Of a DNA stretch of 64,000 nt, positions 1,938-43,399 are shown in pieces. The stretch spans positions 97,367,491 to 97,431,490 of the forward strand of contig CM037595.1 of the NCBI GenBank assembly GCA_021018995.1. Direction: 5' to 3'. The stretch comes from Chloranthus sessilifolius. Its lineage: Eukaryota; Streptophyta; Magnoliopsida; Chloranthales; Chloranthaceae. The notes under the pieces are model-generated. The model was not told the origin of the DNA and made no database searches. It worked only from the letters and a program-made list of their open reading frames with translations. The first letter of the stretch is position 1; each line of letters opens with the position of its first letter. The position numbers and the translations under genes are program-made.

Positions 1938-4155
1938 TGTGACAGCCCGGATTTCGGCACCCCGAAACCCATGCCATCAGCACGATCATCTTGACCGTGC
2001 CCCTTAGCTAAGCATGGAACATTGGTATATCAAGCACAGAATTGAAATAGTAAATGAAACTGTGAAATTTAAATCTATATAAAAGCATTTCTCAAAAGAC
2101 AGTTCTACCCTCATGCCTCTGCATGAATTGAGAACCGATCCGAACCATCGATGATAGCAAATCATAATGGATGGTTCGCCCCAAAAGAACAATCCCAATT
2201 CATACATGTATATTGTTTAGCCAAAACAAGGCTTGACATACCAAGTCGTACAAATCTCTATCCAAAAGCCCTCAAAGCGGCACAACGGAGTCCTCTAGAA
2301 GAAGTCCTCAGGAGGTGGCTCCAACTCCTCTCCGGCCGCAAGGTCCGACTCACCGGGGTCAGCGTCTCCTGAAGCCTCGGCAGCTGCTAGTAGTGGACTT
2401 GCGACGTATAGTCTATAAGGTGAGCTACATCCTAGCTTAATAGGGAACAAAACACAATTGAACATATAAATTATTACTCATATATATTCTATGATATGCC
2501 ATGCATGATGCGTCTATGCAGTCACTGATGAAAACAGTTAAAAAGCATTACATTTTACTGGTAGTTTACTCATGTCTTTATTTATTCATGAATGATGCTA
2601 AAAAGGCCTAAAGCAAAACTTAAACTTTAAACTTAAGTAATCCCCGAGCAATATAGCATCGAACCCCGATGAGATACCCATCATCGTCATCTATATAGAC
2701 ACTTTTAACGTATTCCCTGGGAATACAAATAGTACCCAAGCCCCTTTCCCCTGGGGATTGGTGGCGGGGTTTCACTTGTCTCAAATCAACACCCCTGGGG
2801 TGTGCTTACTGTGTACGGATAAGCCTCCGCACTGGCCTACGGTTTCACTGCCGTATTGGTCACGAATATCCTGTCGTGTCAGTCGTGGATATCCCGCCAC
2901 GTCGGTGGGGTACCCTATCAAACCTCAAATAACAAAAATATCGGTGCCTTACATATAGTTATTTACCGTGTAAATGTGCTATCTTATATCAGTTAGGCCC
3001 TATCAAATATGATCCAATCTTGGATACATCCCTGGGATGTATCCATTCACTTGTATCACACCTGATGCTCTTATCTCTTTACTTCTTCATCCCCTGGGGA
3101 TGACTCATTATGATTACTTTTATTGATGTCACACACACACACTTTTCCCAACTCTTTAAGAAATAAAACATTTGGAATTTCAAATCTATATCACTACATA
3201 CATGCTCTTGTAAAATAAGGTACATGTTCAAGGAGTTCTCTACCTCAAGTCTTCGTTTGATCAATGCATCAAGGTCCCACGTGGCTCCTTGTGCACTTGC
3301 TCACACATACCACCTATGGTACCACATAACATGTGAAACACATAATAAGGATGCAATAAAGGAGGTCCAAGACCCCCCAAAGATCTTAAAGTCAAACTCA
3401 GAAGTCAACATCAATTGTCCCAATCGATTAATCGATTTCCAAAATCGATTAATCGAAAGTCAATATCGATTAATCGATTCTCAAATCGATTAATCGAGAT
3501 TCCCATTCGATTAATCGAAACCCAATTCAATTAATCGAAATTCCCTGCTCTATCAAGTTGATTCTCAATTCGAGTAATCGAGTTTCCAAAATCGATTAAT
3601 CGATCCCAAATCGATTAATCGAAATTACAAATCGATTAATCGAATTTTCATTTTGATTAGTCGATTTCATCAAGCCCATTTCTTTTTTTCACTGGAGTCC
3701 ACTGTAGGCTCCCAGTCGATTAATCGATTCTCAATTCGATTAATTGAAATCCAAAGTCGATTAATCGAAACCCAATTCGATTAATCGAAATCGGGGTCCT
3801 CTGACTTTTCAGCTTCTTGGCCAATTTTGATTAATCGAAACCCAATTTTGATTAATTGAAATTGCCAGATTTTACCCCCTTCTGGCTGTTCTTCCAATTC
3901 TTTCTCCATTTATTTTCTTTCTTTTTCTAAGCCTTTTTACCCTATATTTTACACCATTCTAACTACGATTAACCTCCCATATCTTATGCATTTAATTCAC
4001 AAGAAATTTACCTCAATCAAATCTCAATTTGATTAGATCTAGTGGTTGGAAAGGCTAGGGTTCCAGCTTTGGCTCTAACGGATCCAAACCGTGTCGAATC
4101 CGGCTTTTATCGCTTGAATCCCCCTTCCAATCAGTTGCAATAACTCCTCTCTTTA

Positions 4156-4191
<36 letters not shown>

Positions 4192-4455
4192 TTACTCTCC
4201 TCAACAACCAAGATATAGATTTTAGGGTTATTAAACCCTTTTATCTATCCCCTTCCTTGTGTGTTGAGCACATACACCGTTGTAGGTGTATGCGACTTCA
4301 CATTCACATCACACACCACACAATCTCTCAAACCATCACATCTCATCCGTTCATCACACTCTATGTCAACCATTGAACTCCTAATTGGTCAAACCCGGGA
4401 CCAATCGGGCACGAATCTCGAGGTCACTGTTTAACGTAATTTTTCAGAATATTAC
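1938..4455 (-). repeat. 3' LTR of the chromovirus
   Basis: Starts TGTGACAGCC at 1,938 and ends ...CAGAATATTAC near 4,455; it aligns end to end with 12,524-15,008. It carries about 11 exact CGATTAATCG palindromes plus decayed ones (3,422-3,862) and a CT run near 4,161-4,190. The purine tract lies just outside it at about 4,456-4,472. Confidence 0.95.
3422..3862. repeat. TCGATTAATCGA palindrome array, 3' LTR copy
   Basis: About 11 exact CGATTAATCG cores and at least five decayed ones in 440 bp of the LTR. Several cores intact in the partner LTR have TG or CA in place of CG here, as expected from deamination of methylated cytosine. Confidence 0.9.
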
Positions 4456-4472
4456 TTCCTCCCCACCTTAGG
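4456..4472 (-). promoter_or_regulatory. Polypurine tract of the chromovirus
   Basis: On the coding (minus) strand AAGGTGGGGAGGAAG directly precedes the 3' LTR. This is the expected plus-strand primer position. Confidence 0.75.
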
Positions 4473-4766
4473 AATTTTTGTCCTCGAAAATAACCCAAAG
4501 TGCGTCGGTCGGGGTCTCTCCCACCCCCCCCCCACACTCGCAGGTGAGGTGGTCGAGTAGACTCAGACGCATTCAGATCGTTACAAATACCAGCATAGAA
4601 TTTAAATTTGACGAATTGGAACAATTTACACAAAAATTTTGCTTTGTATTTATAATTGAAACCTTTTACAATGCCAGATAAGTTGGCGTACAAAACAAAT
4701 CTACAGGTATATAATCAAAATGTAAAAATAAATACAAGACTCGAGTCCCTCGCCAGGTGGTGGGTG

Positions 4767-6417
4767 CTACTGGTGGGTGGTGAGTTGCTGTGGCTGCGGT
4801 GGTGGAGACCGTGCTGGCTGAGTAGGCGGAGGTAGCGGCGGTTGTGACAGGAGCGTCTCTATCGGCGGAGCGGATGTAGATGTGGAAGGAGTCACGTCAG
4901 TAGTGGCGGTGGTGGGATGGAAAATGGGACCTCTGTGGAAGGCGGTCCGTCCCGCAGTCCACTCCTCCTGAGCGAGATAGCGGTGGTAGTCTGTCGGGTA
5001 GATGTAGCGGAGGGTGTGGAACATCAAGAAGTCCATCCTCCGGTTCATCCGATCGTTGTTGGCCTCCATGCGAGCCAACACCTCGTCGATGGTAGGACCG
5101 GATGGAGCGGCGCGTCCGCGGTATGATGAGGTGGGTGTAGCGTGAGTGAGAGGCGGTGTCGTGTGTGTGTGGTATGAGAGGTAGCCCTCTCCACTGATGG
5201 CTCGGCCGGGTGTGCCCCACCCACGGGTGGGTCCTGTTGTGGTGGTGGGGGTGGTGGCGGTGCGACTGCTGCTGCTGCTGGAGCGGGACCTGGAGCCGGT
5301 AGGGTCCGCTTGAGCAGGTTGTAGCTACGGGTCCATGAAGACTTGGAGAACGTCTTCACGCAATTCGTAGCCCTCACCTCGTGAGGTGAGATAGTGTAGG
5401 AGGGATCGTTGGAGTAGCACTCCAACATGCTCGAGATGAGGCAAGCGTAGGGCATCTTCTCCTTGGGCCGGAGGTTGCCCTTCATTAGTTTGCCCTTGAT
5501 GTACCTCATCCCTCAAGGATGACCATGGTGGCGTCGAACCACCGGCCACAGAAGGCCGCATAGAGTGCGTGTTGCACTCGGTCCACGCGCTCGGTATCGT
5601 GGCGCATTGGGTAAAGGTTGCACTTGATCACCGAATCAAGCATCCACATATAGTGGGAAAGGTCAACCCTCTTTATGGAGGATCCCGACCCCTTTTTGCC
5701 GTTGGTCATGCGGGTCATGACCTCCTCGAATCGAGGGTCCTCCTCAAAGGGTGGGAATAGGGTGGTCTCAGGGGTAAAGTCGAGGTAGCACTCAAGCACC
5801 TCGTGGACGTGGCGACGTGTGATCGTGTAGTCTCGACCCTCGATGGTGGTCTTGATCACATCGTCCGTCGGGCCGTCCACAAGCCCCTGGTAAAACAATC
5901 TCACCAATCTAGGGTAATAGGAACCCCGGATTGGTTTGAGAAGGTTGCCGAGACCGGCATTGTTAAGGTAAGTTCGAGCCCATTGGGTCTCACCCGACAC
6001 ATCGGGATTTGTGAAAAGGGTAGGGTCGATGAGGTACTCGACCTCAAAAGTCTTTGCGGCCCACCATTCATTAGGTTGCACCACGTTAGTGGGTGGTGGG
6101 GGCATGGGCGTGGACTCGCGGAAAGACTCGCGCGAAGATGCGCTCGTCGAACCAGAGGTGGTCTTCAATGCCGACGGTGATGGAGTCCTCACCGGCGATG
6201 GGGTAGGTGGTGGTGGTGCGGCGTTCTTACGCCGGACCGGTAGCTTAGAGGTTGCCTTCCTTGAAGACAATCGGGTTTTAGGCGGCATTTTGACGAAGTT
6301 TCCGGTGAAAACTAGGGTTTTCGACTTGAAATTGAAGAAATACGCGAGCCTAGGGTTTACCTTAGGTTTCGGAGGCGAATGCGGGCGATTGCGGATGCGA
6401 ATCGGCAGAAAATCCAA
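4767..6417 (-). mobile_element. Extra ORF between integrase and 3' LTR
   Basis: A coding remnant on the same strand as gag-pol. The N-terminal part is basic and Pro/Ser-rich (MPPKTRLSSRKATSK, then a PPPPTPSPVRTPSPS stretch). It is followed by a conserved-looking domain with WARTYLNNAGLGNLLKP, YYPRLVRLFYQGLVDGP and DYTITRRHVHEVL. This resembles the 'putative plant transposon protein' domain often found in plant retroelement ORFs (recalled, not searched). The C-terminal third is Pro-rich with LARMEANNDRMNRRMDFL. The function of this family is unknown. The ORF is broken. A third ORF here is not part of the textbook chromovirus layout, so it may be an acquired accessory gene. Confidence 0.72.
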
Positions 6418-6536
6418 ACCCTAGATCGCTCGATCGGTTGGAGAAGAAGGAGAAGAAGAACGCCCAAATTAACCCAAAGCCCAATTGATTTCGAATGGGA
6501 AATAAAATCCCCAATTTTATATATATAGGCTCCGGC

Positions 6537-7264
6537 TCGATTAATCGAAATCCAGAATCGATTAATCGAGATTCAAAACTAGGTTAAGCCGCGCAAAATC
6601 GATTAATCGATTTCCCAAATCGATCAATCGAAAGTCAAAATCGATTAATAGAAATCGTATCCGTTTAAAAATTTAAGTTTTTGAGCTCACTGGCGCTAGC
6701 CAGTCGATTAATCGAAATCCATTTCGATTAATCGAAATTTCAAAATCGATTAATCGAAATTCTCTTCGATTAATCAAAATCGTGCAGTCCCTTCCAAAAT
6801 TTTCAGGATTCTTTAAGTTATTCGATTAGTCGAACTATGGTTCGATTAATCGAAATCTCAAATCGATTAATCAAATTCCACCTCGATTAATCGAAATTGT
6901 TTCTCTGACTCCAAATTTTCCTAAGTTCCTTAAGTAAATCGATTAATCGAACTTCCAGTTCGATTAATCGAAATCTCCTCGATTAATCGAAACCTCCTCG
7001 ATTAATCAAAATTTCATTTGTTCATTCCTAATTTCTTCTAACATTCCCAGTATGTTCGATTAATCGAACATGTAGTTCGATTAATCGAATTCCCAATTCG
7101 ATTAATCGAATTCCCAAAATCGATTAATCGAATTCCCAAAATCGATTAATCGAAATTATAAATCGATCAATCGAAATTGCATTCTGTGTCTGTCCTAACT
7201 CTTATCCAAATTTCCAGTCACTGGCACATGCCAGTCGACTAATCGAACAAAATCGATTAATCGG
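6537..7264. repeat. TCGATTAATCGA palindrome array, internal copy
   Basis: Between the integrase end and the extra ORF there are about 17 exact CGATTAATCG cores plus several one-base variants, spaced irregularly by about 15-60 bp. The spacers are simple AT-rich text such as AAATCC or AATTCCC. The core is a perfect inverted repeat. The array contains no open frame worth noting. Confidence 0.9.
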
Positions 7265-7530
7265 TTTTGCCCAATTTCTGCAGATTTTCAAATTCTTTGG
7301 TTCTTTGATTACTTTTGGTAGTTTTGACATCAAATGGCTCATAGTTTTATAGAAACACATACACTTGGTCATGTGCATACAAAATCTGTTCTTTAAATCA
7401 TACTTTGATCAAGACTTCCATTGATTTACAAGTGTTGTGAAAATCCACAAACATGCTTGTGGTTTACATTGGATTCTCACGTCGTTGGAAACAAGGCTAG
7501 ATATTGTTCTTTCACATCGGCCTCTCATTC

Positions 7531-8560
7531 CTAAGTAGCCTCTTCCTTTGGATGATTGTTCCACCGAACAAGCACTAAGGGAATCACCTTAGTGCGCAGT
7601 ACTTGTTCCTTTCGATCCAAGATTTCCACTGGTTCCTCTATCATGCTCATGTCATCACACATCTCCATAGGTTGTTTCCCTAACACATGAGATGGATCGT
7701 TCACATACTTTTTGAGCATCGATATGTGGAAAATGTTATGTACCTGATCAAACAGCGGTGGTAAGCCAATGCGATACGCAACTTCACCTACGCGTCCCAA
7801 AATTTCAAATGGTCCAACATAACGTGGGCTTAACTTCCCTCTCTTGCCAAATCTCATTACGCCTTTCATAGGTGACACTTTCACAAGCACGTGCTCACCC
7901 ACTTTATAGTCGACACTAGTCCGCTTGATGTCGGCGTAACTTTTCTATCTACTCTGTGCTGACTTCAGCCTTTCTCTGATTATTCGAACGACGGTGGCGT
8001 TGTCTTCAAGTAGTTTTGGGCCTAAAACAAATTTCTCGCCTGTTTCTTCCCAATTGAGGGGTGATTTGCATCGTTGTCCATACAGAGCTTCATACGGTGT
8101 CATGCCAATGCTCGTTTGGAAACTGTTGTTGTATGCGAATTCGAGCAACGGTAGATACTCATCCCAGTATCCTTGCATATCTAGCATGCACGCTCTGAGC
8201 ATGTCTTCTATCACTTGGTTCACTCGCTCTGTCTGCCCATCAGTTTGAGGATGGAAAACTGAACTAAAATCTAGTCGTGTTCCCATTCCTTCTTGAAATT
8301 TCTTCCAAAACTTGGACGTATATAGTGGATCACGATCTGAAACTATGCTGCTTGGAATCCCGTGTAGTCTTACTATCTCCTTCATATATAAGTCTGCCAA
8401 TCTTCCTGCCGTATACATCGTATTGTACGGCAGAAAGTGCGCTGATTTGGTCAATCGATCTACGACGACCCAAATGGCATTGTGTCTCTTAGCGATGCAG
8501 GGCAATCAACAATGAAATCCATCGAGATCGATTCCCACTTCCATTACGGGATTGGTAAAG
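7531..8560 (-). mobile_element. Chromovirus integrase core and chromodomain-like tail
   Basis: The integrase catalytic core is at about 8,000-8,500: VVVDRLTKSAHFLPY, then VSDRDPLYTSKFW, VFHPQTDGQTERVNQ and FAYNNSFQTSIGMTPYEALY, which give the D,D,E pattern of the family. Downstream, to 7,531, are the GEHVLVKVSP...GPFEILGRVGEVAYRI module and then VLRTKVIPLVLVRWNNHP, which matches the chromodomain-like end of chromovirus integrases. That domain is known to steer insertion toward particular chromatin. The region is broken, and the tail is followed by the palindrome-rich 3' region. Confidence 0.9.
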
Positions 8561-10860
8561 TAATAGTCCAATAGTCGGATGTCTATGATCAATCTTCACT
8601 TGCTGACAAGTCAAACACCGTGACACATATTTGGCCACGTCTTGCTTCAAACCTCTCCACCAGTAGTTCTTTTTCAAGTCTTGGTACATTTTGGTGCTAC
8701 CAGGGTGGATAGCATAATTTGACTTATGGGCTTCATCAAGAATGGTTCGTCTTAGATCGACATTGTCAGGAATGCATAGACGACCCTTAAACAATAAAGA
8801 ACCATCTTCTTTAACTGAGAAGTCCAAACTGATACCTTCACTCACGTCTTGATGAATCTTTGTTAATGCCGAATCTTTCATCTGTAGATCGTGGATATGC
8901 TCGAATATTACTGACTTTGCCGATATGTTAGCCAAAAAGGATCCGGTAGCTTTTGACTCAATGTTCGCATCGTAGACTGCCAGGTCTTCCAATAATTTCC
9001 ATCGATGCATACCCAAAATCAAACAAGTTAACTGAGCTGAACCCTTCCGACTCAATGCATCGGCTACTACGTTCGCCTTGCCTGGATGGTACTGTATGGA
9101 GCAATCGTAATCCTTGAGGAATTCCATCCATCTGCGCTGTCTCATGTTGAGCTCTTTCTGTGTAAACAAGTATCAGAGGCTCTTATGATCGGTGAAAATT
9201 TCAAAAGTCTCACCATACAAGTAATGTCTCCAAATCTTCAGTGCAAAGATGACTGCTGCTAGCTCCAAGTCATGAGTCGAATAATTTTTCTCGTGTTCTT
9301 TCAGCTGTCTTGATCCGTAAGCTATCACCTTCTTGTGTTGATTGAGTACACAACCCAAACTGTTGTATGATGCATCGCTGTACACGACGTATCCTCCACT
9401 GCCTGAAGGAATAGCTAGCACTGGTGCTAAAGTGAGTCTCGTCTTGAGTTCTTGAAAACTCATCTCGCATGCCTCACTCCACTCAAATCTTGAATCCTTT
9501 CGTGTCAGCTTTGTGAGAGGTCCCGATATCTTTGAAAACCCCTCGACGAAACGTCGATAATAGCCTGCTAAGCCCAGAAAACTTCGGACATCGGTCACTG
9601 TCTTTGGTTGCTCCCATTTAACCACAGCTTCTATCTTTCTTTGGATCTCTGGTGACACCATGCTTTGAGACGACATGTCCCAAAAAGCTAACCTCTTCCA
9701 ACCAAAACTCACATTTGCTGAGTTTGGCATACAATTGGTGTTCACGTAGCGTCTGTAGGGCAATCCTCAAGTGTTCTTCATGTTCCGTCTTGGATTTGGA
9801 GTATATCAATATATCATCAATGAACACTACGACGCAGGAGTCCAAGTGTGGTTTAAACACTTGGTTCATCAGATCCATAAACGACGCCGGAGCATTCGTC
9901 AACCCAAACGGCATCACAAGGAATTCATAGTGTCCATACCGTGTCCTGAAAGCTGTCTTCTGGATGTCCTCTGCCTTGACTCGCAACTGATGGTATCCAG
10001 ATCTCAGATCGATCTTCGAAAAATACCTTACTCCTTGCAGTTGATCGAACAAATCGTCAATTCTAGGCAAAGGGTAGCGGTTCTTCACAGTGAGTTTGTT
10101 TAATTGTCGATAGTCAATGCAAAGCCGCATTGACCCGTCTTTCTTCTTGACAAATAAGACCGGTGCTCCCCATGGAGACACACTCGGTCTGACAAACCCC
10201 TTGTCCATAAGCTCTTGTAGTTGTTCCTTCAACTCCTTTAACTCAGCAGGAGCCATTCGATATGGCACTTTTGAAATAGACTCCGTTCTTGGCGCTAAGT
10301 CGATGGTGAATTCTACTTCTCTCTCTGGAGGTAATCCAGGCAATTCTTCTGGACACACGTCGGCGAAGTCTCGCACAACTGCTATCTCAGAGATGATGTT
10401 CTTTTCTTCCTTGTTCTCCTTTAAGAAAGCCAAGTATCCACTGCAACCCTTTCTGATCATTTTCTCGGCCCTTACTGCTGAGATCAGTGGCACAGATGAC
10501 GACCTCACTCCTTGGAATCGAAATGATCTTCTTGTGTTGGGTCTGAAAATGACTACCTTGTTCTTGCAATCGACGGTTGCACAAGATCTTCCAACCACCA
10601 TGCCAAGGATCACATCAAACCCTTGCATGTCTAAGTATCAACACTTCCAATTCATGCACCTCTAGGTCTCGAACTGCTACAATGATGGATTTGCAAGCTA
10701 ACTCCGTGTCCACTAACTCTCCAGTCGGAATAGACACAGATAGGACGAAGTCCAACGCCTCTGGAATAATCTTCATCTTTTTGGCGAAACGTGGAGTGAC
10801 GAATGAGTGGGTAGACCTTGGGTCTATCAACACTCTAGCGTCATATCCAACGAAGCACCT
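8560..10860 (-). mobile_element. Chromovirus protease, RT and RNase H region
   Basis: Minus-strand pol remnants. The aspartic protease area is near 10,620-10,860 (LIDPRSTHSFV in the place of the D-S/T-G site). RT is at about 9,650-10,430, with [42 protein letters not shown] and the catalytic block [12 protein letters not shown]. RNase H spans about 8,900-9,560, with [24 protein letters not shown] and [13 protein letters not shown]. An integrase zinc-binding segment ([19 protein letters not shown]) begins near 8,600-8,720. These enzymes would make cDNA from element RNA in the particle. The order is typical Ty3/gypsy. The region is broken in several places and is not functional as it stands. 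Confidence 0.93.
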
Positions 10861-11042
10861 TTTTCATATATAGTTAAAGTACCTATAGTATACATACATA
10901 CATACAATAATTTACACATCAATTTACACCCCTAATTCACATATAAATTTAGTATTGAGAAAAAGAATCTATACAATTCCTAATGCATGCACCTTCTCTA
11001 TCTAAAATTTTAATGAAATGGAAATTTTCTTTAATTTAAAAG
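10860..11042 (-). other. AT-rich spacer between gag and protease
   Basis: About 180 bp of AT-rich sequence with CATA repeats separates the gag and protease remnants. Its composition is clearly unlike the coding sequence on either side. It begins, on the coding strand, with a GTGAG-type motif and ends with AAAAAG, so it resembles a plant intron; a later small insertion is the alternative. Confidence 0.5.
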
Positions 11043-12432
11043 AGTCTCACCTTGGATGACGTCATGCACGTTCCCTGCTTCCTGAGCAGTGACTGCATAG
11101 GCTCTCCCCTGAACGATCGGCTTCCTTGCTTGAATGGGTCGTGGTGCTGCAACTGAAACCGTCTTTCTTTTATCCGTCTCGGGGCAATCCTTGATCAAGT
11201 GGCCCACCTTGCCACATCGGAAACAACCCCTAGTCCCCGCTCTGCAATCCACTGTTCTATGAGGCTTGCCACACTTTGCGCAAGTCTCCCGAGGTGCGGA
11301 AGAAACAATATGAGAACCCTGTGTGATAGTGGCGCCAGTAGACATGGCAGGGTTCTCATATTGTAAAGGTCTCCCGACGCAAGTAATGGAAACCTCTGTT
11401 GGTGTTGTTGTTGCGCCGGCCTTCCAAAACCTCCATGAAACTGTGGTCTCTGATTTTGGGTCACGAACCTCGGCTTTTTATTCACTGGTTCATAGGTCCC
11501 CGTCCTTCCTTGTTCATTTCCTCCTCTCTGCTGCTCCCTCTGTCTATATCTGTTATTGTTCTCCTCTTCTACAACCAACGCCTAACTCATGACCTCTTCA
11601 TAGGTCCTTAACTGAAATGGAGCTACGCCTCCCCTAACCTTAGGCTTCAAACCTTACTGAATCCTCTTGGATTTCATCACGTCGGTAGTGACGTAATCCG
11701 GAGCAAAACGGGCAAGTCGTAGAAACTCTACCCCATATTCTCTCACTGTCATTCTCCCTTGCGCTAACTGTAGAAATTGTATCTCAAGCTGATTTCTCAC
11801 CACTTCCGGAAAATATTGTTTGTTGAACTCCTCAACAAACTCCTCCCACGTCCAAAGCAACTCTGGGGTCTCCTGAGCCCTAGTCCGTATCACGGACTTC
11901 CACCAAGGCCCAGCCTCCGCATCCAACATATAAGCTGCCCATCTCACGCTCTCATCTTCTGTGCATGTCAGCACGCTAAAGACTTTCTCCATCTCCATAA
12001 GCCGGCTTCGGCGCCATGGTGTCTCACCAGAAAATGAAGGAGGTCTCATCCTCCTAAACTCGTAAGGATGAGGGCACAGGAGCATGGTCCTGCAGTGGTG
12101 TAGGTGTGGTCATTGTTGTCTTGATGCATGAGCTGCAAAGGATGCAGCTTGTTGTGCCATGGCAGCTGCCATAGTCTCCATAGTATGCATCATCCTTTGT
12201 CGCTCCTCTCTGTCTTCTTGTCTCTCTCTCACCCTCTCCTGTTCTCTTAGATCTTGATCCTGACGATCTCGATCCTCTTCATCATGCTGTCTACTACTAC
12301 TGCCCCCTGGGGCCTCAGTACCTCCTCAAGGCACTCTATTAGTAGGTGAGATGTAATCATCTCCACTCGTGAACTCCTCTGTTGGCCTCCCCTTGGTCGG
12401 CCTCTTCCTCTAGATGACATTTGCGGCTGCAT
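11031..12432 (-). mobile_element. Chromovirus gag region
   Basis: Minus-strand coding remnants of gag. An Arg/Gly-rich N-terminal part (RGRGRPRGGQQRSS) lies near 12,250-12,430. The capsid domain follows at about 11,650-12,090 with the typical AEAGPWWKSV, WEEFVEEFNKQYFPEVVRNQ and LARFAP text. Then come a Gln/Arg-rich linker and one CCHC zinc knuckle, CFRCGKVGHLIKDC, at about 11,170-11,230. Gag would form the virus-like particle and bind element RNA through the knuckle. The layout and size match chromovirus gag. The reading frame is broken, so this is a fossil. It is followed on the coding strand by an AT-rich spacer and then protease. Confidence 0.88.
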
Positions 12433-12509
12433 TTGAAACTAAAGTTTCGTTAGCAGAAGCCCCTATGTTCTGACCAAAAGAACGATTGTCAGAATTGCTA
12501 AAAGAAATA

Positions 12510-12522
12510 GCTTTGATACCAA
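12510..12522 (-). promoter_or_regulatory. Primer binding site (tRNA-iMet type) of the chromovirus
   Basis: Immediately inside the 5' LTR the minus strand reads TTGGTATCAAAGC. This is a close match to the TGGTATCAGAGC site that plant retroelements use to prime on initiator methionine tRNA. It fixes both the LTR boundary (12,524) and the element's orientation. Confidence 0.85.
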
Positions 12523-12523
12523 C

Positions 12524-15008
12524 TGTGACAGCCCAGATTTCGGCACCTTGAAACCCGTGCCATCAGCACGATCATCTTGACCGTGCCCCTTAGCTAAGCA
12601 TGGAACATTGGTATATCAAGCACATAATTGAAATAGTAAATGAAACTGCGGAATTTAAATCTATATAAAAGCATTTCTCAAAAGACAGTTCTACCCTCAT
12701 GCCTCTGCATGAATGGAGAACCGATCCGAACCATCGATGATAGCAAATCATCACGGATGGTTCGCCCCAAAAGAACAATCTCAATTTATACATGTACATT
12801 GTTTAGCCAAAACAAGGCTTGACATACCTAGCCGTACAAATCTCTATCCAAAAGCCCTCAAAGCGGCACAACGGAGTCCTCTATAAGAAGTCCTCAGGAG
12901 GTGGCTCCAACTCCTCTCCGATCGCAAGGTCCGACTCACCGGGGTCAGCGTCTCCTGAAGCCTCGGCAGCTGCTAGTAGTGGACCTGCGACGTATAGTCT
13001 ATAGGGTGAGCTACATCCTAGCTCAATAGGAAATAAAACATAGTTGAACATATAAATTATTACTCACATATATTCCATGATATGCCATGCATGATGCGTC
13101 TATGCAGTTACTGATGAAAACAGTTAAAAATCATTACATTTTACTGGTAGTTTACTCATGTCTTTATTTATTCATGAATGATGTTGAAAAGGCCTAAAGC
13201 AAAACTTAAACTTTAAACTTAAGTAATCCCCGAGCAATATAGCATCGAGCCCCGATGAGATACCCATCATCGTCATCTATATAGACACTTTTAACGTATT
13301 CCCTGGGAATACAAATAGTACCCAAGCCCCTTTCCCCTGGGGATTGGTGGCGGGGTTTCACTTGTCTCAAATCAATACCCCTGGGGTGTGCTTACTATGT
13401 ACGGATAAGCCTCACGCAGCCGCCTACTTCATTGCCAGATCGGTCACTTGGATATCCCGCCGTCAGGATATCCCGCCACTCAAATAACAAAAATATTTGC
13501 CTTACATATAGTTATTCACCGTAAATGTGCTATCTTATATCGCTTAGGCCCTATCAAACATGATTCAATCTTGGATACATCCTCGATGTATCCATTCACT
13601 TGTATCACACCTGATGCTCTTATCTCTTTACTTCTTCATCCCCTGGGGATGGCTCATTATGATTACTTTTATTGATGTCACACACACACACTTTTCCCAA
13701 CTCTTTAAGAAATAAAACATTTAGAATTTCAAATCTATATCACTACATACATGCTCTTGTAAAATAAGGTACATGTTCAAGGAGTTTCCTACCTCAAGTC
13801 TTCGTTTGATCAATGCATCAAGGTCCCACGTGGCTCCTTATGCACTTGCTCACACACACCACCTATGGTACCACATAACATGTGAAACACATAACAAGGA
13901 TGCAATAAAGGAGGTCCAAGACCCCCCAAAGATCTTAAAGTCAAACTCAGAAGTCAACATCAATTGTCCCAGTCGATTAATCGATTTCCAAAATCGATTA
14001 ATCGAAAGTCAATATCGATTAATCGATTCTCAAATCGATTAATCGAGATTCCCATTCGATTAATCGAAACCCAATTCGATTAATCGAAATTCTCTGCTCT
14101 ATCAAGTCGATTCTCAATTCGAGTAATCGAGTTTCCAAAATCGATTAATCGATCCCAAATCGATTAATCGAAATTACAAATCGATTAATCGAATTTTCAT
14201 TTCGATTAGTCGATTTCATCAAGCCCATTTCTTTTTTTCACTGGAGTCCACTGTAGGCTCCCAGTCGATTAATCGATTCTCAATTCGATTAATCGAAATT
14301 CAAAGTCGATTAATCGAAACCCAATTCGATTAATCGAAATCGGGGTCCTCTGACTTTTCAACTTCTTGGCCAATTTCGATTAATCGAAACCCAATTTCGA
14401 TTAATTGAAATTACCAGATTTTGCCCCCTTCTGGCTGTTCTTCCAATTCTTTCTCCATTTATTTTCTTTCTTTTTCTAAGCCTTTTTACCCTACATTTTA
14501 TACCATTCTAACTACGATTAACCTCCCATATCTTATGTATTTAATTCACAAGAAATTTACCTCAATCAAATCTCAATTTGATTAGATCTAGTGGTTGGAA
14601 AGGCTAGGGTTCCAGCTTTGACTCTAACGGATCCAAACCGTGTCGAATCCGGCTTTTATCGCTTGAATCCCCTTTCCAATCAGTTGCAATAACTCCTCTC
14701 TTTACTTTTTTTTTTTTTTTTCTCTCTCTCTCTCTCTCTTCTTTACTCTCCTTCAACAACCAAGATACAGATTTTAGGGTTATTAAACCCTTTTATCTAT
14801 CCCCTTCCTTGTGTGTTGAGCGCATACACCGCTGTAGGTGTATGCGACTTCACATTCACATCACACACCACACAATCTCTCAAACCATCGCATCTCATCC
14901 GTTCATCATATTCTATGTCAACCATTGAACTCCTAATTGATCAAAACCGCGACCAATCGGGCACCGATCCCGAGGTCACTGTTTAACACAATTTTTCAGA
15001 ATATTACA
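12524..15008 (-). repeat. 5' LTR of the chromovirus
   Basis: Begins on the plus strand with TGTGACAGCC and ends AATATTACA; it matches 1,938-4,455 over its whole length. It carries 14 or more exact CGATTAATCG palindromes (13,973-14,410), a T/CT run near 14,708-14,740, and short CA and TA tracts. Because the element reads on the minus strand, this right-hand copy is the promoter-side LTR. Confidence 0.95.
13973..14410. repeat. TCGATTAATCGA palindrome array, 5' LTR copy
   Basis: About 14 exact CGATTAATCG cores in 440 bp, at the same places as in the partner LTR but with fewer CG losses. Confidence 0.9.
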
Positions 15009-26123: not shown

Positions 26124-26455
26124 CATAGTGACAAATTTTGTTTTCGGAAACATTTCAGTAGGGGGTTATTTCAGATAAATTTTGAGAAAAATTCGAAAAG
26201 TTTCGGAAAAATTTTGGGGAGTACAAAAAATATTAAATATAAATTATATTTAAACTTCATAAAAATTTTATTTATTATTTTAAAAATGACAAAAATTAAA
26301 ACAGATTTATTAATTTTGGTGAAATTTCATTAATTTTGGCGAAACTTCAGTGATTTCAGAGAAATCATCGAAATTTCGCTGAGAGTTTCGCCTGACCCCT
26401 GTTTTGATAAATTTCAAAGAAATTTTGGAGAATTTCAGATAAATTTGTCAGTATG
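26124..26455. mobile_element. hAT MITE, CATAGTGAC family, copy 1
   Basis: A 332-bp element with terminal inverted repeats CATAGTGACAAATTT and CATACTGACAAATTT (one mismatch). It is flanked by CACACGGG and CTCATGGG, a weak 8-bp duplication matching at 6 of 8. The body is AT-rich with GAAATTTCG-type subrepeats. It is inverted relative to copy 2 at 29,450. Confidence 0.8.
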
Positions 26456-26472
26456 CTCATGGGTGGGCGCAC

Positions 26473-28713
26473 TGTGACGGGGCCAATACTCGAGCTTGTA
26501 GCATGGTGCTTGGGGCACGACATGTGGTGCCAGGAGTGCACGCGACATGGGGCCAAGTGGGCCTGGCGACGTGATCGCTTCTTGAGGAGCGCTGCGATCG
26601 CATGTGGGTAGGATCTTGGAGGCGACACCAATAGGTTTGATGTTCTCCTGTCATTCGGGTCGAATGATTGTTTTACCCCTCTATGTGGGAGAGGAGCTGG
26701 AGAGTTGCCTTCCACCCACACGGGGCCTTGCGTTGCTAGAGGGGGCGCAAGTGTCTCCTAGGCCTAAAAGGGTGGGTCTAGGATGTTGACGCAGCGATGC
26801 CGTGTGCCACCCAAGGGAGGTTGATGTGTGGCTCCGGACTACGCGTTGCGGTGCATACGGGTGGGCAACCTCGTGAGAACACCAGAACGTTGTGTGGGAC
26901 TCAGTTGAGCATTATAGCATGTGGGCCAAGGATGAACGGGTGCTAGTAATTCGGAACTCACACGAAGGCAGGCTGCGTGGGACTCAGTTGAGCATGCGAG
27001 CGCGAGGCACAAGGCTGTGGGCTTGGTTCGGTATGTGAGCAAGACATGATGGCATGGGGAGCTGCATGCCAAGACTGCTGCGAAGCGAGATACTAGTGCA
27101 AAGGCAGTGGTGAAGCTTGAGAGCAAGCGGTTTAGCACAAAGCAAACGAAGGTCATGTTGGGAGAATTCCCGTCCTCTAGGCGGGTGGTATCAGAACTGA
27201 TGTGTAGATGGGTTGGCTTCGTTGCATGCGGTAGCGAAACACCGTGTGGGTTAAAAGCGCGTCGAAGGACGCTCCGCGACTATTGGTATCAGAAGTAGGC
27301 TGACTTAGTGCAGCGTGTGTTAAGTGTCACACGGGACTGAGGTTGCGGAAGTGCGACCCCGTGACATTTTGGTATCAGACCCAAGTTCGATCAAGAAGTG
27401 ATGATGCTATTGAGTAAATTGGTGCGGAGGCACGCGGTGTGGTGTCAAGAGGGCATGCGACATCCATGAACAAAATTGGTGTCAGCAGTGACACGCGGTG
27501 TGGTGTCAAGAGGGCACGCGACATCCCTGAGCTAGTTAACAGGTGAGGGCCTTGTGACAGCAGAACCAAGTTGACTCGGCCGGTGTGCGGTGGGGAGCTA
27601 GTGGGAAGGTGCGAACCTAAAGAACTAGAAATGTGATGCTAACAGGTTGGGAGGAGTTGGCGGGGTCGGTTCACTGCGATCATACGTCAACGAGGACGTT
27701 GACATTTATGGAGTGGTGGAAAATGTGACGGGGCCAATACTCGAGCTTGTAGCATGGTGCTTGGGGCACGACATGTGGTGCAAGGAGTGCACGCGACATG
27801 GGGCCAAGTGGGCCTGGAGACGTGGTCGCGCTGCGAGGACGCGACACGGTCGCATGTGGGTATGATGCGGGAGCGACACAGTCGCGGCACGGACGTGACA
27901 CAGCCAAGGTGGGCTAGCGATGCAGGAGGCGTTGCGGTATGCCAAACCAATAGGTTTGAGGTTCTCCTGCTATTCAGGTCGAATGACTGTTTTACCCCTC
28001 TATGTGGGAGAGGAGCTGGAGAGTTGCCTTCCACCCACACAGGGCCTTGTGTTGCTAGAGGGGGCGCAAGTGTCTCCTAGGCCTGAAAGGGTGGGTCTAG
28101 GACGTCGACGCAGCGATGCCGTGTGCCACCAAAGGGAGGTTGATGTATGGCTCCGGACTACGCGTTGCGGTGCATACGGTTGGGCAACCTCGTGAGAACA
28201 CCAGAACGCTGTGTGGGACTCAGTTGAGCACGATAGCATGTGGGCCAAGGATGAACGGGTGCTAGTAATTCGAAACGCACACGAAGGCAGGCTGCGTGGG
28301 ACTCAGTTGAGCATGCGAGGGCGAGGCACAAGGCTGTGAGCTTGGTTCGGTATGTGAGTAAGACATGATGGCATGGGGAGCTGCATGCCAAGACTGTTGC
28401 GAAGCGAGGTACTAGTGCAGTGCACAGGGTGAAGCTTGAGCAAGCCAAGTTTAAACACAGTGGTGTAAACGAGCGTGTCGTAAGGGGCATGACATAGTTG
28501 GATGGTAGGCCGCGAAATAGAGGTAACCGTGTTAGGGGAGTTTCCGTCCTCTAGGCGGGTGGTATCAGAGATGATGTGTAGATGAGTTGGCTTCGTTGCA
28601 TGTAGTAGCGGCTGGTTAAAAGCGCGTCGAAGACGCCTCATGATGGTATCAAGTAGGGGACTTAGCGCACGTGTTAAGTGCCGCATATGAGGTGTTGAAG
28701 TGCGACCGTGACA
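26473..28713 (+). mobile_element. Coding-free LTR element, copy A
   Basis: Two long direct repeats surround a short middle. LTR 1 is 26,473-27,366 and LTR 2 is 27,724-28,713 (TGTGACGGGG ... GTGACA). The ~357-bp middle starts with TTTTGGTATCAGAC, a tRNA-iMet-type primer site, and ends in the purine-rich GGAGTGGTGGAAAA. There is no gag or pol, so it is a non-autonomous element that depended on another element's proteins. The LTRs are unusually GC-rich for this window. The middle also holds a short tandem duplication (GGCACGCGGTGTGGTGTCAA type) near 27,428-27,525. Flanks CGCAC and CTCAC agree at 4 of 5. Confidence 0.88.
27367..27379 (+). promoter_or_regulatory. Primer binding site of copy A
   Basis: TTTTGGTATCAGA directly after the LTR end GTGACA; it matches the initiator-methionine tRNA site. 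Confidence 0.85.
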
Positions 28714-29449
28714 CTCACCAAATCGGGGTTCGACAATAATTCGACGAGGTTTAAATTTGGAAAAATCCGGTAAATCCGAGAAGTTTGAAGAAATATTCGG
28801 AGGAAAAATCACTAAGAAAAATTAAAATAAAAAAATAAAAAAATTATAAATTATAAAAAAAAAATTAAAAATTTTAGTAAGTCACAACATTTTAAAAAAA
28901 TTCGAGAATTACTCAAAAATAATTCTCGAGCTTTTCAAAAATTCGGCGATTTTTGTGACTATAGGGGGCCACTAAAAAAGTGAGTTACTATTGAGTAAGT
29001 GGTACAATTCAAGAGACTTGATACTCAAGTCACTTTTAAAAATGTGTACCATATGGAATCAATATTTGTACTCTTTAATTGGTGCACCATAATTTAAAGG
29101 TTTGTGATAAAAAAGATTAATTTGATTCAAAAGAAGTAAAAAAAAAAATTATAATTAAATACGGGATATTACCTAAATCTAATATACTGACCGTATTGAC
29201 AGTACAACAAAAAATTGCCGCTATTAGTCCTGACGTAATCAAAAAAATGCTTTAATAGCAAGTGCCGCTGAAACCCTTTATTTTTGTAGTGTGAATTGGA
29301 TAATGGAGATCTCTTTTTCTTTTGTCCAATCTCTTACACAATAGATCATGAGATTAGAGCTGTCAATTCAAATAGAACGCATAGTTCAATGAATTAGTAT
29401 TGGTGTGAGCGCCAAGAGTACTCAAATCATATTTTAGATGCGCGCCACA
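28714..29449. other. AT-rich intergenic stretch
   Basis: Contains AATTCG-type low-complexity text and a fragment of the GATC-rich fold-back family near 29,000-29,130. No gene is visible. Confidence 0.45.
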
Positions 29450-29790
29450 CATAGTGACAAATTTCTTTGAAATTCTCTAAAATTTCTTCGAAATTTATCG
29501 AAATAGGGGTCAGGTGAAACTTTTGGCGAAATTTCGATGATTTCCCTGAAATTGCTGAAATTTTATTATTTTATGCAAAATTAATGAAATTTCACCGAAA
29601 TTAATAAATCTTTTTTAATTTTTGTCATTTTTAAAATAATAAATAAAATTTTTATGAAGTTTAAATATAATTTATATTTAATATTTTTTGTACTCTCCGA
29701 AATTTTTTCGAAACTTTTCGAATTTTTCTCGAAATTTATCTAAAATGAACCCTTACCAAAATGTTGCTGAAAACGAAATTTATCACTATG
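29450..29790. mobile_element. hAT MITE, CATAGTGAC family, copy 2
   Basis: A 341-bp element with inverted ends CATAGTGACAAATTT and CATAGTGATAAATTT. It is bounded by a perfect 8-bp target duplication GCGCCACA (29,442-29,449 and 29,791-29,798), diagnostic of hAT transposition. It is largely the reverse complement of copy 1 and has no coding content. Confidence 0.93.
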
Positions 29791-29798
29791 GCGCCACA

Positions 29799-30177
29799 TG
29801 GAATCATCATGTGTACCATTTATAGGTGAGTCATGATCTAAACTTCTTTGGTATAAAATGCTAAGAGTAAAAATGATATTTATCATTTAGGCCAATGCTA
29901 TCAAATGTTAACGGGCACCATATGAATCTAAGATACTATGAATTTTAAATGACTTTTGACTGCTTTGAATCGAATGATGGAGACCATCTTTTGACTCAAT
30001 TTTTTGCACCATAGATCTCGATATCTTTGGAACCAGATCACACATAATACACGGTTATCTACATATTGCATACCTCCCAAAATTGACCAAAGTTCAACGA
30101 TCTTCGATGCAGGTTACATAACTAATACCTACTTTCTTCTAATCAAATAATTTGATTTTCAAACTTGTGACTAGAAG
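29799..30177. other. Intergenic, fold-back fragments
   Basis: Contains worn pieces of the GATC-rich fold-back family; no gene is seen. Confidence 0.4.
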
Positions 30178-30290
30178 TAGGGCTGTAATGGGCCGGGCCG
30201 GGTTTTCATCTGGCCCATTTTTTAAAAAAAAATTTGGGCTTAGCTCGGTCCGATTAGCTATCCGGGTCGGGCTTAGCCCGTTTTTAGAAT
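30178..30290 (+). mobile_element. hAT-derivative end fragment
   Basis: Starts TAGGGCTGTAATGGGCCGGG, the same terminal sequence as the element at 20,451. It continues in CCGGGTCGGGCTTAGCCC text until it is replaced by copia-type LTR sequence. Only one end is present. Confidence 0.6.
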
Positions 30291-31000
30291 TATCGGGATT
30301 TCACTTGTGTCTTTTCAGATAAGAGTAAAAGGAAAAGTCGATTCCACTTGTGTCTTTTCAAATTTATTGTGAAGAGATACCAAACTTATGTCTTTTCATA
30401 TTTACGGTGAAGAGATAAATCCAAATCCAAATTTCAAAAGACATTTCTTTAGGTTGATAATATTATAAGCTTGCCATTGAATTATTATCAATATATATAA
30501 TGATAATTATAAACTTAATTTTGAAACAATAAAATATATATTACTATACTAATATATATAACAATCCCCCACTTATTTCAAAATAAAAAAAACTGTGTAT
30601 TAGAGCGATCATACTAAGCATCATCAGAGGTACCAATCGGTTTAAACCTGTGACTAGTACATACAACTCAAAGTTTGTAAGGATTTAAGTAGCTTATAGC
30701 CTTGAACTTAAAACCTGTCTAACAAATCGGAATTACATATACACTTACTATGACCTAAATCATTAGTGACATAAGGTCTGCGCTTTACATCAATGCGTTA
30801 AAATCCTGATTTCATGAGTATCTTAGAGAGCTGATCGAATCTCTGTTGAAGTGGTGATAGCCTATTAATGCTTATTTTTTCTAAATTTTATTTTTAAGTC
30901 TTCTTATTTTAATAAAGAACAGTTTAAGTCATCGCCCACATCATGTAAATTTATTATATCTACTATTAAAAAATGTATCTTACCAGGGCTCGTTATCGTT
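30291..31000 (-). mobile_element. Ty1/copia-type 3' end fragment (LTR start plus internal part)
   Basis: In minus orientation. The LTR part 30,291-30,563 begins (minus strand) TGTTATATATATTAG. The purine tract GAAATAAGTGGGGGAT lies just outside at 30,564-30,579, and internal non-coding sequence follows to about 31,000. The LTR text is shared, inverted, with the copia-type LTR at 58,873-59,690 (repeated AAAAGACACAAGTG motifs). It is a truncated fossil; copia assignment rests on the LTR and purine-tract style. Confidence 0.55.
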
Positions 31001-31090
31001 GCAGGGATACAGACTATAGTAAACAATACAGTGTGATTTAAACTAATTCAAGGAAAACAGACTACAATAAACAATAACATTAGGAGACTA

Positions 31091-31092
<2 letters not shown>

Positions 31093-31146
<54 letters not shown>
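31093..31146. repeat. (TA)n microsatellite
   Basis: About 54 bp of uninterrupted TA. Confidence 0.97.
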
Positions 31147-31151
<5 letters not shown>

Positions 31152-32091
31152 AGAAATAAATAAGTTAAACGGTGCTAACGTGGAAAAGGCTTGGCTTAGA
31201 GCTGGCCTTTTGCATAAAGAATGAAACTATAGGGCCGTTTTTGCAATTAAGTAAAATTATAGGGCCAAAAATGTAAATTTCCCTAGATTGAACATTAGTT
31301 ATGATAAACATGAGTTTGAACATTAGGGTATAAGAGGATTAGTATGCAATAATTAGGATTTGTCATTTATGTTTCTTTTTCCGTTGCTTATATGTGCATT
31401 TGTATTATTCTTTTGCGAAACTTTGAACTATGTTACAATGAATATACGGCCTAAGATCTTACAATCAAGGATTGTGAGGACTCGAGTCGTTACACTTATG
31501 ATCTATCGTGAAGACGTAGCAATTCAATTCCATATTTTTCCTAAGATCTGTCCCGATAAAAACACCATATTTTTCTTTGATTTTATATATAAAATATCCG
31601 GTTGGGTTGACCTGTCCTGATTTTTGCCCTATCTAAACCGACTCGACCCAACCTCTTAGTCAACCTGACTTGGCGGGTCAAGGATATACCCGAAACCTAA
31701 CCCGACCTGAAGCCTGACCCAAAAGCCCGATCCGACCAAGTAAAAACCCCTATTTCCTGTGATTTTATTTATATAATTTTTTAGCCTGTACGACCAACCA
31801 AAGTTTTGTGCAACCCAACTCTTTAGTCTGCCTGACCCGAATTTTCACGGTTATATGTCATACCGAATCCGAAAAGTTGTCTCGACCTGATAAAACCCCC
31901 TTATTTTCCTTTTGATTTTATGTATAAAATATTAAGTTGGGTCGACCCGAACTGACCCGATCCAACCTTTTAGTTGACTCGAACCGACGGACGGGTCAAG
32001 GGGATTTGCCCGACCTTACCCAAAACCTGGTCCGACTCAGTAAAAACCCCCAATTTTCCTTTGATTTTATATATAAAATTTCGGGCAAGGT

Positions 32092-32264
32092 CAAGGATCA
32101 AAATTTTGGCCGGAATGATCGAAATTATCGGTTTTGGTCCACACTGAAACGATAATTTGGGACCGAAATTTCGGTCATAGAATATATGGGTTTGAAATTA
32201 TCGACCGAAATTTTGGTTTCGATCCCCTCCGAAACCGAAACGAAAACCGAAATTTTGATCCTTG
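32092..32264. mobile_element. hAT MITE, CAAGGATC family, copy 1
   Basis: 173 bp with inverted ends CAAGGATCAAAATTT on both sides. It is framed by a perfect 8-bp target duplication GGCAAGGT (32,084-32,091 and 32,265-32,272). The inside is GAAATTTCGG subrepeats. It is inserted inside the tandem repeat. Confidence 0.93.
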
Positions 32265-32408
32265 GGCAAGGTCGACCAAACCTGACCCAACGTTTTAGTT
32301 GAACTGATGGGTTAAGTGTATTTGCCCTATCCGACCCGGCCCGTCCAAAAACCCTGCCCAACCCAAATATCAAAATCCCAACCCAACCCAAAAAAGCCAC
32401 ATATTTTC

Positions 32409-32413
<5 letters not shown>

Positions 32414-32474
<61 letters not shown>
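32414..32474. repeat. (TA)n microsatellite
   Basis: About 60 bp of TA within a tandem-repeat unit. Confidence 0.97.
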
Positions 32475-32477
<3 letters not shown>

Positions 32478-32962
32478 TGGGTCGCGTGGAACTGATCCAA
32501 CTCAACCTTTTACTCTACCTGACCCAAGGGGTCAGGGTATTTGCCTGGCCCAACCAGAAAACCGAACCCGACTCAATAAAAATATCCTATTTCCTTTGAT
32601 TATATATATATATAATTTTGGGCCGATCGGAACCCATTTTTGCACGACCCGACCCAACTTTTCAGTCTATTCGACCCGATGAGTCAAGTGTATGTGCTTG
32701 ACCCGAAAACCCCTAGCCTATTTTCTTTGGATTATATATATATATAATATCGGGTTATGTCAGGTTAGATGCCTCATGCCCGATCTGACCTGATGGGTCA
32801 AGCTTATCACTTATCTGCTCGAAATGGTAAAAACATCGAGTCGGGTGGGTCGAGTATCGGGTTGACCGACCTATTGGCAGCCTTATATTGCTTACTAGTT
32901 GAAAAGATTGTGTACGAAACCTGTGCAATATGTCGGGAGTGATCAGAGGATGTCTGATGCAT

Positions 32963-33159
32963 CAAGGATTAAAATTTCAGCCGAAATGACCAAAATTTCG
33001 GTCGAAATTATCGGTTTCAGTCCACACCGAAACGATAATTTGGGACCAAAATTTCGGTCATAAAATATATGAGATTGAAATTATCGGCCGAAATTTCGGT
33101 CCAAAATTTCGGTTTCGGTCCACTCGAAACCGAAACGAAAACCGAAATTTTGATCCTTG
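32963..33159. mobile_element. hAT MITE, CAAGGATC family, copy 2
   Basis: 197 bp. Ends are CAAGGATTAAAATTT and the complement of CAAGGATCAAAATTT. The 8-bp flanks TGATGCAT and CGATGCAT match at 7 of 8. Confidence 0.9.
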
Positions 33160-34578: not shown

Positions 34579-34788
34579 CAAGGATCAAAATTTCGGTTTT
34601 CATTTTGATTTCGGAGGAGATCGAAATTGAAATTTTGGACCGAAATTTCGGCAGAAATTTCGGCCAATAATTTCAATCCCATATATTCTATGACCGAAAT
34701 TTCGGTCCTAAATTATCGTTTCGGTGTGGACCGAAACCGATAATTTTGGCCGAAATTTCGGTCATTTCGGCCAAAATTTTGATCCTTG
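34579..34788. mobile_element. hAT MITE, CAAGGATC family, copy 3
   Basis: 210 bp, inverted relative to copies 1 and 2. Ends are CAAGGATCAAAATTT on both sides. The 8-bp flanks ATTTGAAC and ATCTGAAC match at 7 of 8. Confidence 0.9.
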
Positions 34789-38624: not shown

Positions 38625-39030
38625 TGCACTCCTGGCACCACATGTCGTGCCCCAAGTACCATGCTGCAAGCTCGAGTATTGGCCCCGTCACATCCTCTAC
38701 CACTCCATAAATGTCAACGTCCTCGTTGACGTATGATCATAGTGAACTGACCCCGGCAACTCTTCCCAGCCTGATAGCATCTCATTTCTAGTTCTTAGGT
38801 TCGCACCTTCCTACTAGCTCCCCACTGTCACCCCGGCCGGGTCAACTTAGTTCTACTGTCACAAAGCCCACACCTGTTAACTAGCTCAGGGATGTCGCGT
38901 GTCCTCTTGACACCACACCGCGTGCCTCCGCACCAATTGTTCATGAATATCGCGTGCCCTCTTGACACCACATCGCGTGCCTCCGCACCAATTTGCTCAA
39001 TAGCATCATAGCTTATGGATTGAACTTGAC

Positions 39031-39042
39031 TTTGATACCAAA
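39031..39042 (-). promoter_or_regulatory. Primer binding site of copy B
   Basis: The minus strand reads TTTGGTATCAAA just inside the LTR that begins at 39,043. It is the counterpart of the site in copy A. Confidence 0.75.
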
Positions 39043-43392: not shown

Positions 43393-43399
43393 AACTCTA

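What the first reader, a model, noticed from the sequence alone, without database searches (positions are those of the whole stretch)
3422..14410. Dense TCGATTAATCGA palindrome arrays in three places of one retroelement
About 40 exact copies of the CGATTAATCG core, plus many one-base variants, occur in both LTRs (3,422-3,862; 13,973-14,410) and in the region after integrase (6,537-7,264), but not in gag-pol. The spacing is irregular and the spacers are simple, so it is not an ordinary tandem repeat: the palindrome is kept while the spacers drift. That suggests selection for, or copying of, the motif itself, for example as a binding site for a dimeric homeodomain-like protein, a template-switch site, or a chromatin signal.
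Basis: partly seen in the sequence, partly recalled or inferred. Interest (0 to 1): 0.8.

Follow-up and report, generated by a model that had tools for sequence, protein, structure and literature searches.

The report
Palindrome arrays in retrotransposon promoters
A plant retrotransposon carries dense arrays of a 12-letter palindrome in its end repeats and in front of an extra gene; the palindrome stays the same while the DNA around it drifts, and related arrays of other palindromes occur in other retrotransposons of the same plant, so these look like clusters of docking sites for a paired DNA-binding protein.

Summary
The arrays are real: 42 CGATTAATCG copies in three places, none in gag-pol; 59 near-exact 12-mers in the window against 0.22 expected. 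Genome-wide TCGATTAATCGA occurs 241,617 times against 55 for the reversed word. One correction: spacing is not irregular; most steps are 18-23 bp.

In 28 of 30 copies a TATA box starts 10-12 bases after the last palindrome, ~250 bp before an extra ORF matching PF20167. Related ORFs in a Ty1/copia family and in Athila-like elements follow arrays of other palindromes.

Closest known: palindromic 'RM boxes' of Sireviruses (PMC2829016); here in Ty3/gypsy with a different half-site. Best reading: promoter-proximal sites for a dimeric DNA-binding protein, host- or element-encoded. Against the element's own PF20167 protein as binder: the palindrome does not track it, and compact elements with arrays showed none. 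A homeodomain is not supported.

The parts
12528..15008 (-). 5' LTR (boundaries approximate)
   Evidence: direct repeats, sequence read, LTR pair aligned
13973..14408 (-). palindrome array of the 5' LTR: 17 sites with up to 2 mismatches
12510..12522 (-). probable primer-binding site (initiator tRNA-Met type, by recall)
   Evidence: sequence read directly
7534..12438 (-). gag-pol fragments in several frames: gag PF03732, RVT_1, RNase H, H2C2, rve (below cut-off), SH3_Tf2-1; no palindromes
6537..7264 (-). linker palindrome array behind pol: 25 sites with up to 2 mismatches
6514..6527 (-). TATA box; starts at the 10th base after the last palindrome
   Evidence: sequence
5506..6288 (-). extra ORF from its first ATG: PF20167 Transposase_32, 33.2 bits against a cut-off of 45; the coding region behind it continues in other frames (broken)
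4455..4472 (-). probable polypurine tract
   Evidence: sequence read directly
1938..4455 (-). 3' LTR (boundaries approximate)
   Evidence: direct repeats, LTR pair aligned
3424..3859 (-). palindrome array of the 3' LTR: 17 sites with up to 2 mismatches

Best explanation
The arrays are promoter-proximal clusters of binding sites for a sequence-specific protein that binds DNA as a symmetric dimer, on two TCGAT half-sites around a 2-bp centre. One cluster lies in each LTR and one ahead of an internal promoter for the extra PF20167 ORF. Shown: dyad symmetry, conservation of the palindrome against drifting spacers, a dominant step near two helical turns, and (in the linker) an array followed by a TATA box. 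Inferred: that a protein binds, that it activates or shields transcription, and that sites arise by repeat duplication and are kept by selection on active elements. On who binds, I lean to a host factor, because element families that look unrelated (window, L081, L069-L071) share the TCGAT-NN-ATCGA type; the confidence given is for the DNA-site reading whoever the binder is.
For: Palindrome kept in 29 of 30 copies. 27 linker arrays: 98.3% identity at non-CpG palindrome positions against 90.0% in spacers and 90.0% outside. 7 LTR arrays: 97.7% against 75.9% and 78.5%. Sharp 12-bp symmetric profile, 728 sites. 176 of 381 distances between exact sites are 19-22 bp; a copia family with another palindrome also has 20-22 bp as its commonest close step, 70 of 202. 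TATA box 10-12 bases behind the array in 28 of 30 copies. TCGATCGATCGA pairs at exactly 21 bp: 3,480 places against 0 for the reversed pattern, with varied spacers in the listed places.
Against: No binding, expression or methylation data. In the window's LTRs the nearest TATA-like word lies ~690-730 bp behind the array, so the LTR anatomy is less clean than the linker's. After insertion palindromes were not spared relative to spacers: 5 of 204 against 4 of 232, 89 of 2,039 elsewhere. Longer gaps (56, 58, 72 bp) are not whole helical turns. Aligners favour matching repeats, which can flatter the motif. The 30 copies share descent.
Confidence: 0.65

Rival explanations
1. Element-encoded regulator (a special case of the binding-site reading): the PF20167 protein binds the array of its own element and activates it or keeps off DNA methylation, as VANC proteins do for VANDAL transposons; protein and palindrome co-evolve.
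For: Arrays lie ahead of nearly all PF20167 ORFs looked at: 29 of 30, 29 of 30, and in most of 11 more. The palindrome differs between PF20167 lineages. Precedent: VANC binds short motifs arrayed in noncoding regions of its own element (PMC5735166, passages).
Against: Compact gypsy elements L069-L071 carry arrays and no PF20167 was found in what was read of them. Window and L081 proteins, same palindrome, are 25% identical; window and L074, different palindromes, 24%; the tree does not resolve them. No structural relative found.
Confidence: 0.2
2. RNA-level role: the arrays act as hairpin-forming RNA that feeds, or decoys, small-RNA silencing.
For: RNA of the linker array folds with z -13.0 (20 shuffles) and of the LTR array with z -9.4 (100 shuffles). 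Maize Sirevirus palindrome clusters attract small RNAs (stated in PMC10760457, passages).
Against: Strong folding follows from any palindrome array. It does not by itself predict a TATA box at a fixed place behind the array or one fixed word per array.
Confidence: 0.1
3. Neutral repeat expansion: slippage and template switching made the arrays and no selection acts on the palindrome.
For: Tandem Repeats Finder reports 19-22 bp units; tandem arrays between pol and the 3' LTR are frequent in Retand elements (PMC11963269, passages).
Against: Palindromes outlast spacers in the window's family and in the copia family: 85% against 73% in spacers and 82% outside. Neutral expansion does not explain why other families have arrays of other palindromes.
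Confidence: 0.05

Closest known systems
Repeated-motif (RM) boxes of Sireviruses, Bousios et al. 2010, PMC2829016 (abstract, passages, sections 9 and 11 read)
   Same: High-copy palindromes, different from element to element, clustered in the LTR and upstream of the extra (env) gene (77 of 79 linker copies before env); a TATA box close behind; flanks diverge.
   Different: Those are Ty1/copia with a CGG-CCG core (except Tnd-1); the window element is Ty3/gypsy, its half-site is TCGAT, its extra ORF matches PF20167, and its LTR has no close TATA box.
VANC anti-silencing system of VANDAL DNA transposons, PMC5735166 (passages read)
   Same: Short motifs arrayed in noncoding regions of a transposon family, evolving through tandem repeats, with different motifs for different families.
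   Different: VANDALs are DNA transposons and VANC binding was shown by ChIP and EMSA; here the motif is palindromic and no binder is known.
Tandem arrays and extra ORFs between pol and 3' LTR in Retand elements, PMC11963269 (passages read)
   Different: Those extra ORFs are mostly antisense and encode TRP28; here the ORF is in sense, matches PF20167, and the same palindrome is also arrayed in the LTR.
PF20167 extra ORF of an Athila element in sunflower, PMC11728184 (passages and section 9 read)
   Same: Sense extra ORF with PF20167; predicted nuclear there.
   Different: No palindrome array is described there ('palindrom' occurs 0 times in its main text).

Membership tests
Sirevirus RM boxes | Ty1/copia Sirevirus pol | tested here: not met
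   Window element has RVT_1, Retrotrans_gag and SH3_Tf2-1. The sister family with CACGGACGTCCGTG has RVT_2 (L072).
Sirevirus RM boxes | palindromic motif in high copy (at least 8) in the LTR | tested here: met
   11 and 14 exact sites in the two LTRs
Sirevirus RM boxes | further copies upstream of the extra ORF | tested here: met
   18-30 sites (up to 1 mismatch) ahead of the ORF in 29 of 30 copies, 4 in L065
Sirevirus RM boxes | CGG-CCG core | tested here: not met
   core is TCGATTAATCGA; met only by the copia family's CACGGACGTCCGTG
Sirevirus RM boxes | TATA box shortly behind the LTR array | tested here: not met
   nearest TATA-like word ~690-730 bp behind in the window LTRs; met at the linker array and about 80-120 bp behind in L069-L071
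Sirevirus RM boxes | multiple polypurine tracts | not tested
   none
VANC-type anti-silencing system | motif arrays in noncoding regions of the element | tested here: met
VANC-type anti-silencing system | element-encoded protein binds the motif and removes methylation | not testable with these tools
   no binding or methylation data
VANC-type anti-silencing system | extra protein related to VANC | not tested
   no VANC sequence was compared
homeodomain dimer site | ATTA half-site kept | tested here: not met
   sister arrays with centre CG lack ATTA; binding itself untested
PF20167 Transposase_32 | profile match above the curated cut-off | tested here: inconclusive
   window 33.2 bits against 45, E 5.9e-8; 7 of 8 members of the alignment match at E 0.01; copia homologue L010 66.7 bits

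The most novel reading that the evidence does not exclude
A portable module, a PF20167 gene plus an operator array of its own palindrome in the gene's promoter and in the LTRs, has spread through Ty1/copia, Tekay-like and Athila-like retrotransposons; the protein is the dimeric binder of the array and frees the element from silencing, an LTR-retrotransposon counterpart of VANC, with palindromes diversifying family by family.
Probability: 0.18. Interest if true: 0.88.

Novelty: new variant of a known kind. Interest (0 to 1): 0.58.

Why it matters
It carries a feature described for Sireviruses into Ty3/gypsy families, gives a concrete internal promoter for an extra ORF of unknown function, and supplies defined probes (several palindromes) for finding what switches these abundant elements on. 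In this genome TCGATNNATCGA occurs at 335,892 places, so any factor that binds it would meet a very large sink of sites.

Tried and rejected
Chance: rejected. Homeodomain reading: not supported, since the shared half-site is TCGAT. Structure of the extra ORF: single-sequence AlphaFold gave mean pLDDT 40, so no fold search was made. PDB profile searches gave nothing better than E 0.36. A protein tree to test whether palindrome and PF20167 co-vary was unresolved (2 of 12 inner branches well supported, long branches). L083's GGTTAACC array (5 sites with up to 1 mismatch, 22 bp apart) is not the top word of the unsupervised scan, which picks CAAAATTTTG there, so I do not count it as a firm further palindrome. 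L075 and L078 fail that scan and pass only with the word taken from L074; L082 is reached by 4 of 40 shuffles and L069 by 2 of 40. Random sampling of the genome for further arrays could not be done. Two planned counts, TCGATTAATCGA pairs and TCGATGCATCGA, did not complete. Rows dropped: L057, L058, L065 from the linker alignment (27 of 30 used); L009 from the copia alignment (29 of 30 used); 7 of 8 pattern loci went into the LTR comparison only where they hold an LTR array (L001-L005, L007 plus the window; L006 and L008 left out).
Full report
1. The observation. CGATTAATCG occurs 44 times in the window: 42 in the three named arrays (11 left LTR, 17 linker, 14 right LTR) and 2 at 38,130/38,228; none in gag-pol. 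With up to one mismatch there are 59 12-mers against 0.22 expected from 100 dinucleotide shuffles. The arrays are not irregular: 13 of 16 steps in each LTR and 18 of 24 in the linker are 18-23 bp, and Tandem Repeats Finder reports 19-22 bp units among others.

2. The element. It lies on the minus strand. LTRs of ~2.5 kb flank fragments of gag (PF03732), RVT_1, RNase H, H2C2, rve (below cut-off) and SH3_Tf2-1, so it is Ty3/gypsy; 'Tekay/Del-like' is my recall, and no chromodomain match was found in 7,534-7,944. Its frames are broken. Behind pol come the linker array (7,264-6,537), a TATA box starting at 6,527, and on the same strand an extra ORF from 6,288 that matches PF20167, 'putative plant transposon protein' (E 5.9e-8, 33.2 bits, below the cut-off of 45).

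3. Family test. A search with the extra ORF returned 130 scored matches out of 47,943 first-look candidates, the window's own copy included. Of the 30 fetched, 29 hold at least 10 exact CGATTAATCG; L065 holds fewer than 3 and 4 sites with one mismatch allowed. In 27 of 30 a TATA box begins at the 10th base after the last palindrome, in one at the 12th; L057 and L058 lack it. The computed ORF start follows 235-251 bp after the last palindrome in 28 of 30 (the codon there is ATG in 27 of 30). 29 of 30 have no palindrome downstream of that start within the locus; L058 has two. The copies share descent, so this is one anatomy seen many times, not 28 independent facts.

4. Motif against spacer. In 27 linker arrays, with all columns conditioned alike, mean pairwise identity is 98.3% at non-CpG palindrome positions, 87.2% at CpG positions, 90.0% in spacers and 90.0% outside. 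In 7 LTR arrays the totals over all pairs are 97.7%, 92.4%, 75.9% and 78.5%; between the window and the two most distant, L003 and L004, outside is 69%, spacers 63-69% and non-CpG palindrome positions 97%. In the window's LTR pair, which diverged after insertion, palindromes were not spared relative to spacers: 5 of 204 sites, all transitions, against 4 of 232 in spacers and 89 of 2,039 elsewhere. Limits: the LTR-pair counts are small, and aligners like to match repeats; but spacers inside the linker arrays are no more divergent than sequence outside.

5. Symmetry and step. The profile of 728 sites is a sharp 12-mer with weak flanks. Of 381 distances between successive exact sites in 29 loci, 176 are 19-22 bp. 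Longer gaps such as 56, 58 and 72 bp are not whole turns, so any phasing holds only between close neighbours.

6. Other families. The 30 best PF20167 loci (of 150 scored) have no TCGAxxxxTCGA, but 29 of 30 have GGACGTCC at least three times, centred in CACGGACGTCCGTG; the last site upstream lies 78-83 bp before the computed ORF start in 19 of 30, and 70 of 202 steps are 20-22 bp. The pol read beside one of them (L072) is RVT_2, Ty1/copia. There motif identity is 85% against 73% in spacers and 82% outside, 29 loci. I then fetched 11 more PF20167 loci, chosen from the list mostly for differing match limits. L076, L077, L079, L080 and L082 carry GGACGTCC. L073, L074, L075 and L078 carry CCTCGCGAGG: 8, 9, 6 and 9 sites with up to 2 mismatches against shuffle maxima of 3, 2, 3 and 2. 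L081 carries TCGATTAATCGA, and L083 five GGTTAACC sites 22 bp apart. An unsupervised scan beats all 40 shuffles in 8 of the 11, in L083 through another word; it fails in L075 and L078 and is weak in L082. In the same scan of 22 window tiles the three that hold the arrays score 16-25; the others score 1-12. 'Athila-like' for L074 and L081 rests on integrase residues by recall.

7. Arrays without the extra ORF. L069/L071 (probably two ends of one element) and L070 are gypsy elements (Chromo match in L070) with TCGATCGATCGA arrays about 80-120 bp ahead of a TATA-like box. No PF20167 was found in L069-L071 with 15 query proteins or a profile, but 3.2 kb between L071 and L069 and the far end of the L070 element were not read.

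8. Genome counts, word against reversed word: TCGATTAATCGA 241,617/55; TCGATCGATCGA 42,168/84; TCGATNNATCGA 335,892/967; CACGGACGTCCGTG 2,526/2; TCGATCGATCGA pairs at exactly 21 bp 3,480/0, with varied spacers in the listed places.

9. Mechanism. A symmetric word, sparing of the word against its spacers, a step near two helical turns, and a place ahead of a TATA box fit clusters of sites for a dimeric DNA-binding protein. The window's LTR is less clean: its nearest TATA-like word lies ~690-730 bp behind the array. The binder may be a host factor or the extra ORF. For the ORF: arrays sit at nearly every PF20167 ORF looked at, and the palindrome differs between lineages. Against it: arrays occur without it, and the palindrome does not track the protein (window and L081 25% identical with the same palindrome; window and L074 24% with different ones; tree unresolved). 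RNA of the arrays folds strongly (z -13.0 and -9.4), but that follows from any palindrome array.

10. What is known. Bousios et al. 2010 (PMC2829016; abstract, passages, sections 9 and 11 read) describe palindromic repeated motifs in Sirevirus LTRs and upstream of env, absent from the other Ty1/copia elements they compared, with a TATA box shortly behind; they could not conclusively identify an internal promoter. PMC10760457 (passages) reports later work linking maize Sirevirus palindromes to small RNAs and says that cis-regions in several elements are arrays of sometimes palindromic repeats; the 2016 paper it cites is not held. VANC (PMC5735166, passages) is the nearest functional model. My searches listed no paper that I could recognise from title, abstract start or passages as describing such arrays in Ty3/gypsy elements with PF20167; the library holds openly licensed papers only, and most listed papers were not opened.

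11. Verdict. The feature is real, shows selection on the palindrome, and is a known kind carried into new territory: a new variant, interest 0.58. Organism and host-factor identity remain unknown.

Noticed in passing
window 38,080-38,240: Another locus with GTCGATTAATCGAC-type sites at 38,129 and a TCGATTAATCGAC site at 38,227 (98 bp apart) and TCGATGCATCGA at 38,151, about 40 bp from a CTATTTAAA word on the minus strand; pairs 98 bp apart recur at C1:458,878 and C1:468,621.
   Followed up: partly
window 26,369-34,751; L083:1816-1989: A different dispersed palindromic repeat, CGAAATTTCG (7 exact in the window) with CCGAAATTTCGG and CAAAATTTTG variants; nature unknown.
   Followed up: no
L083:5-720: PF20167 ORF directly behind what looks like a primer-binding site, i.e. 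in the position of gag rather than behind pol (sequence read, by eye).
   Followed up: no
window 26,473-28,610 and 36,011-39,968: Nested, partly inverted copies of one repeat: direct copies ~3,143 bp apart and inverted copies 88-95% complementary.
   Followed up: no
window 42,563-43,407 and 45,121-45,507: Short local tandem duplications, 72-93% and 60-90% alike.
   Followed up: no
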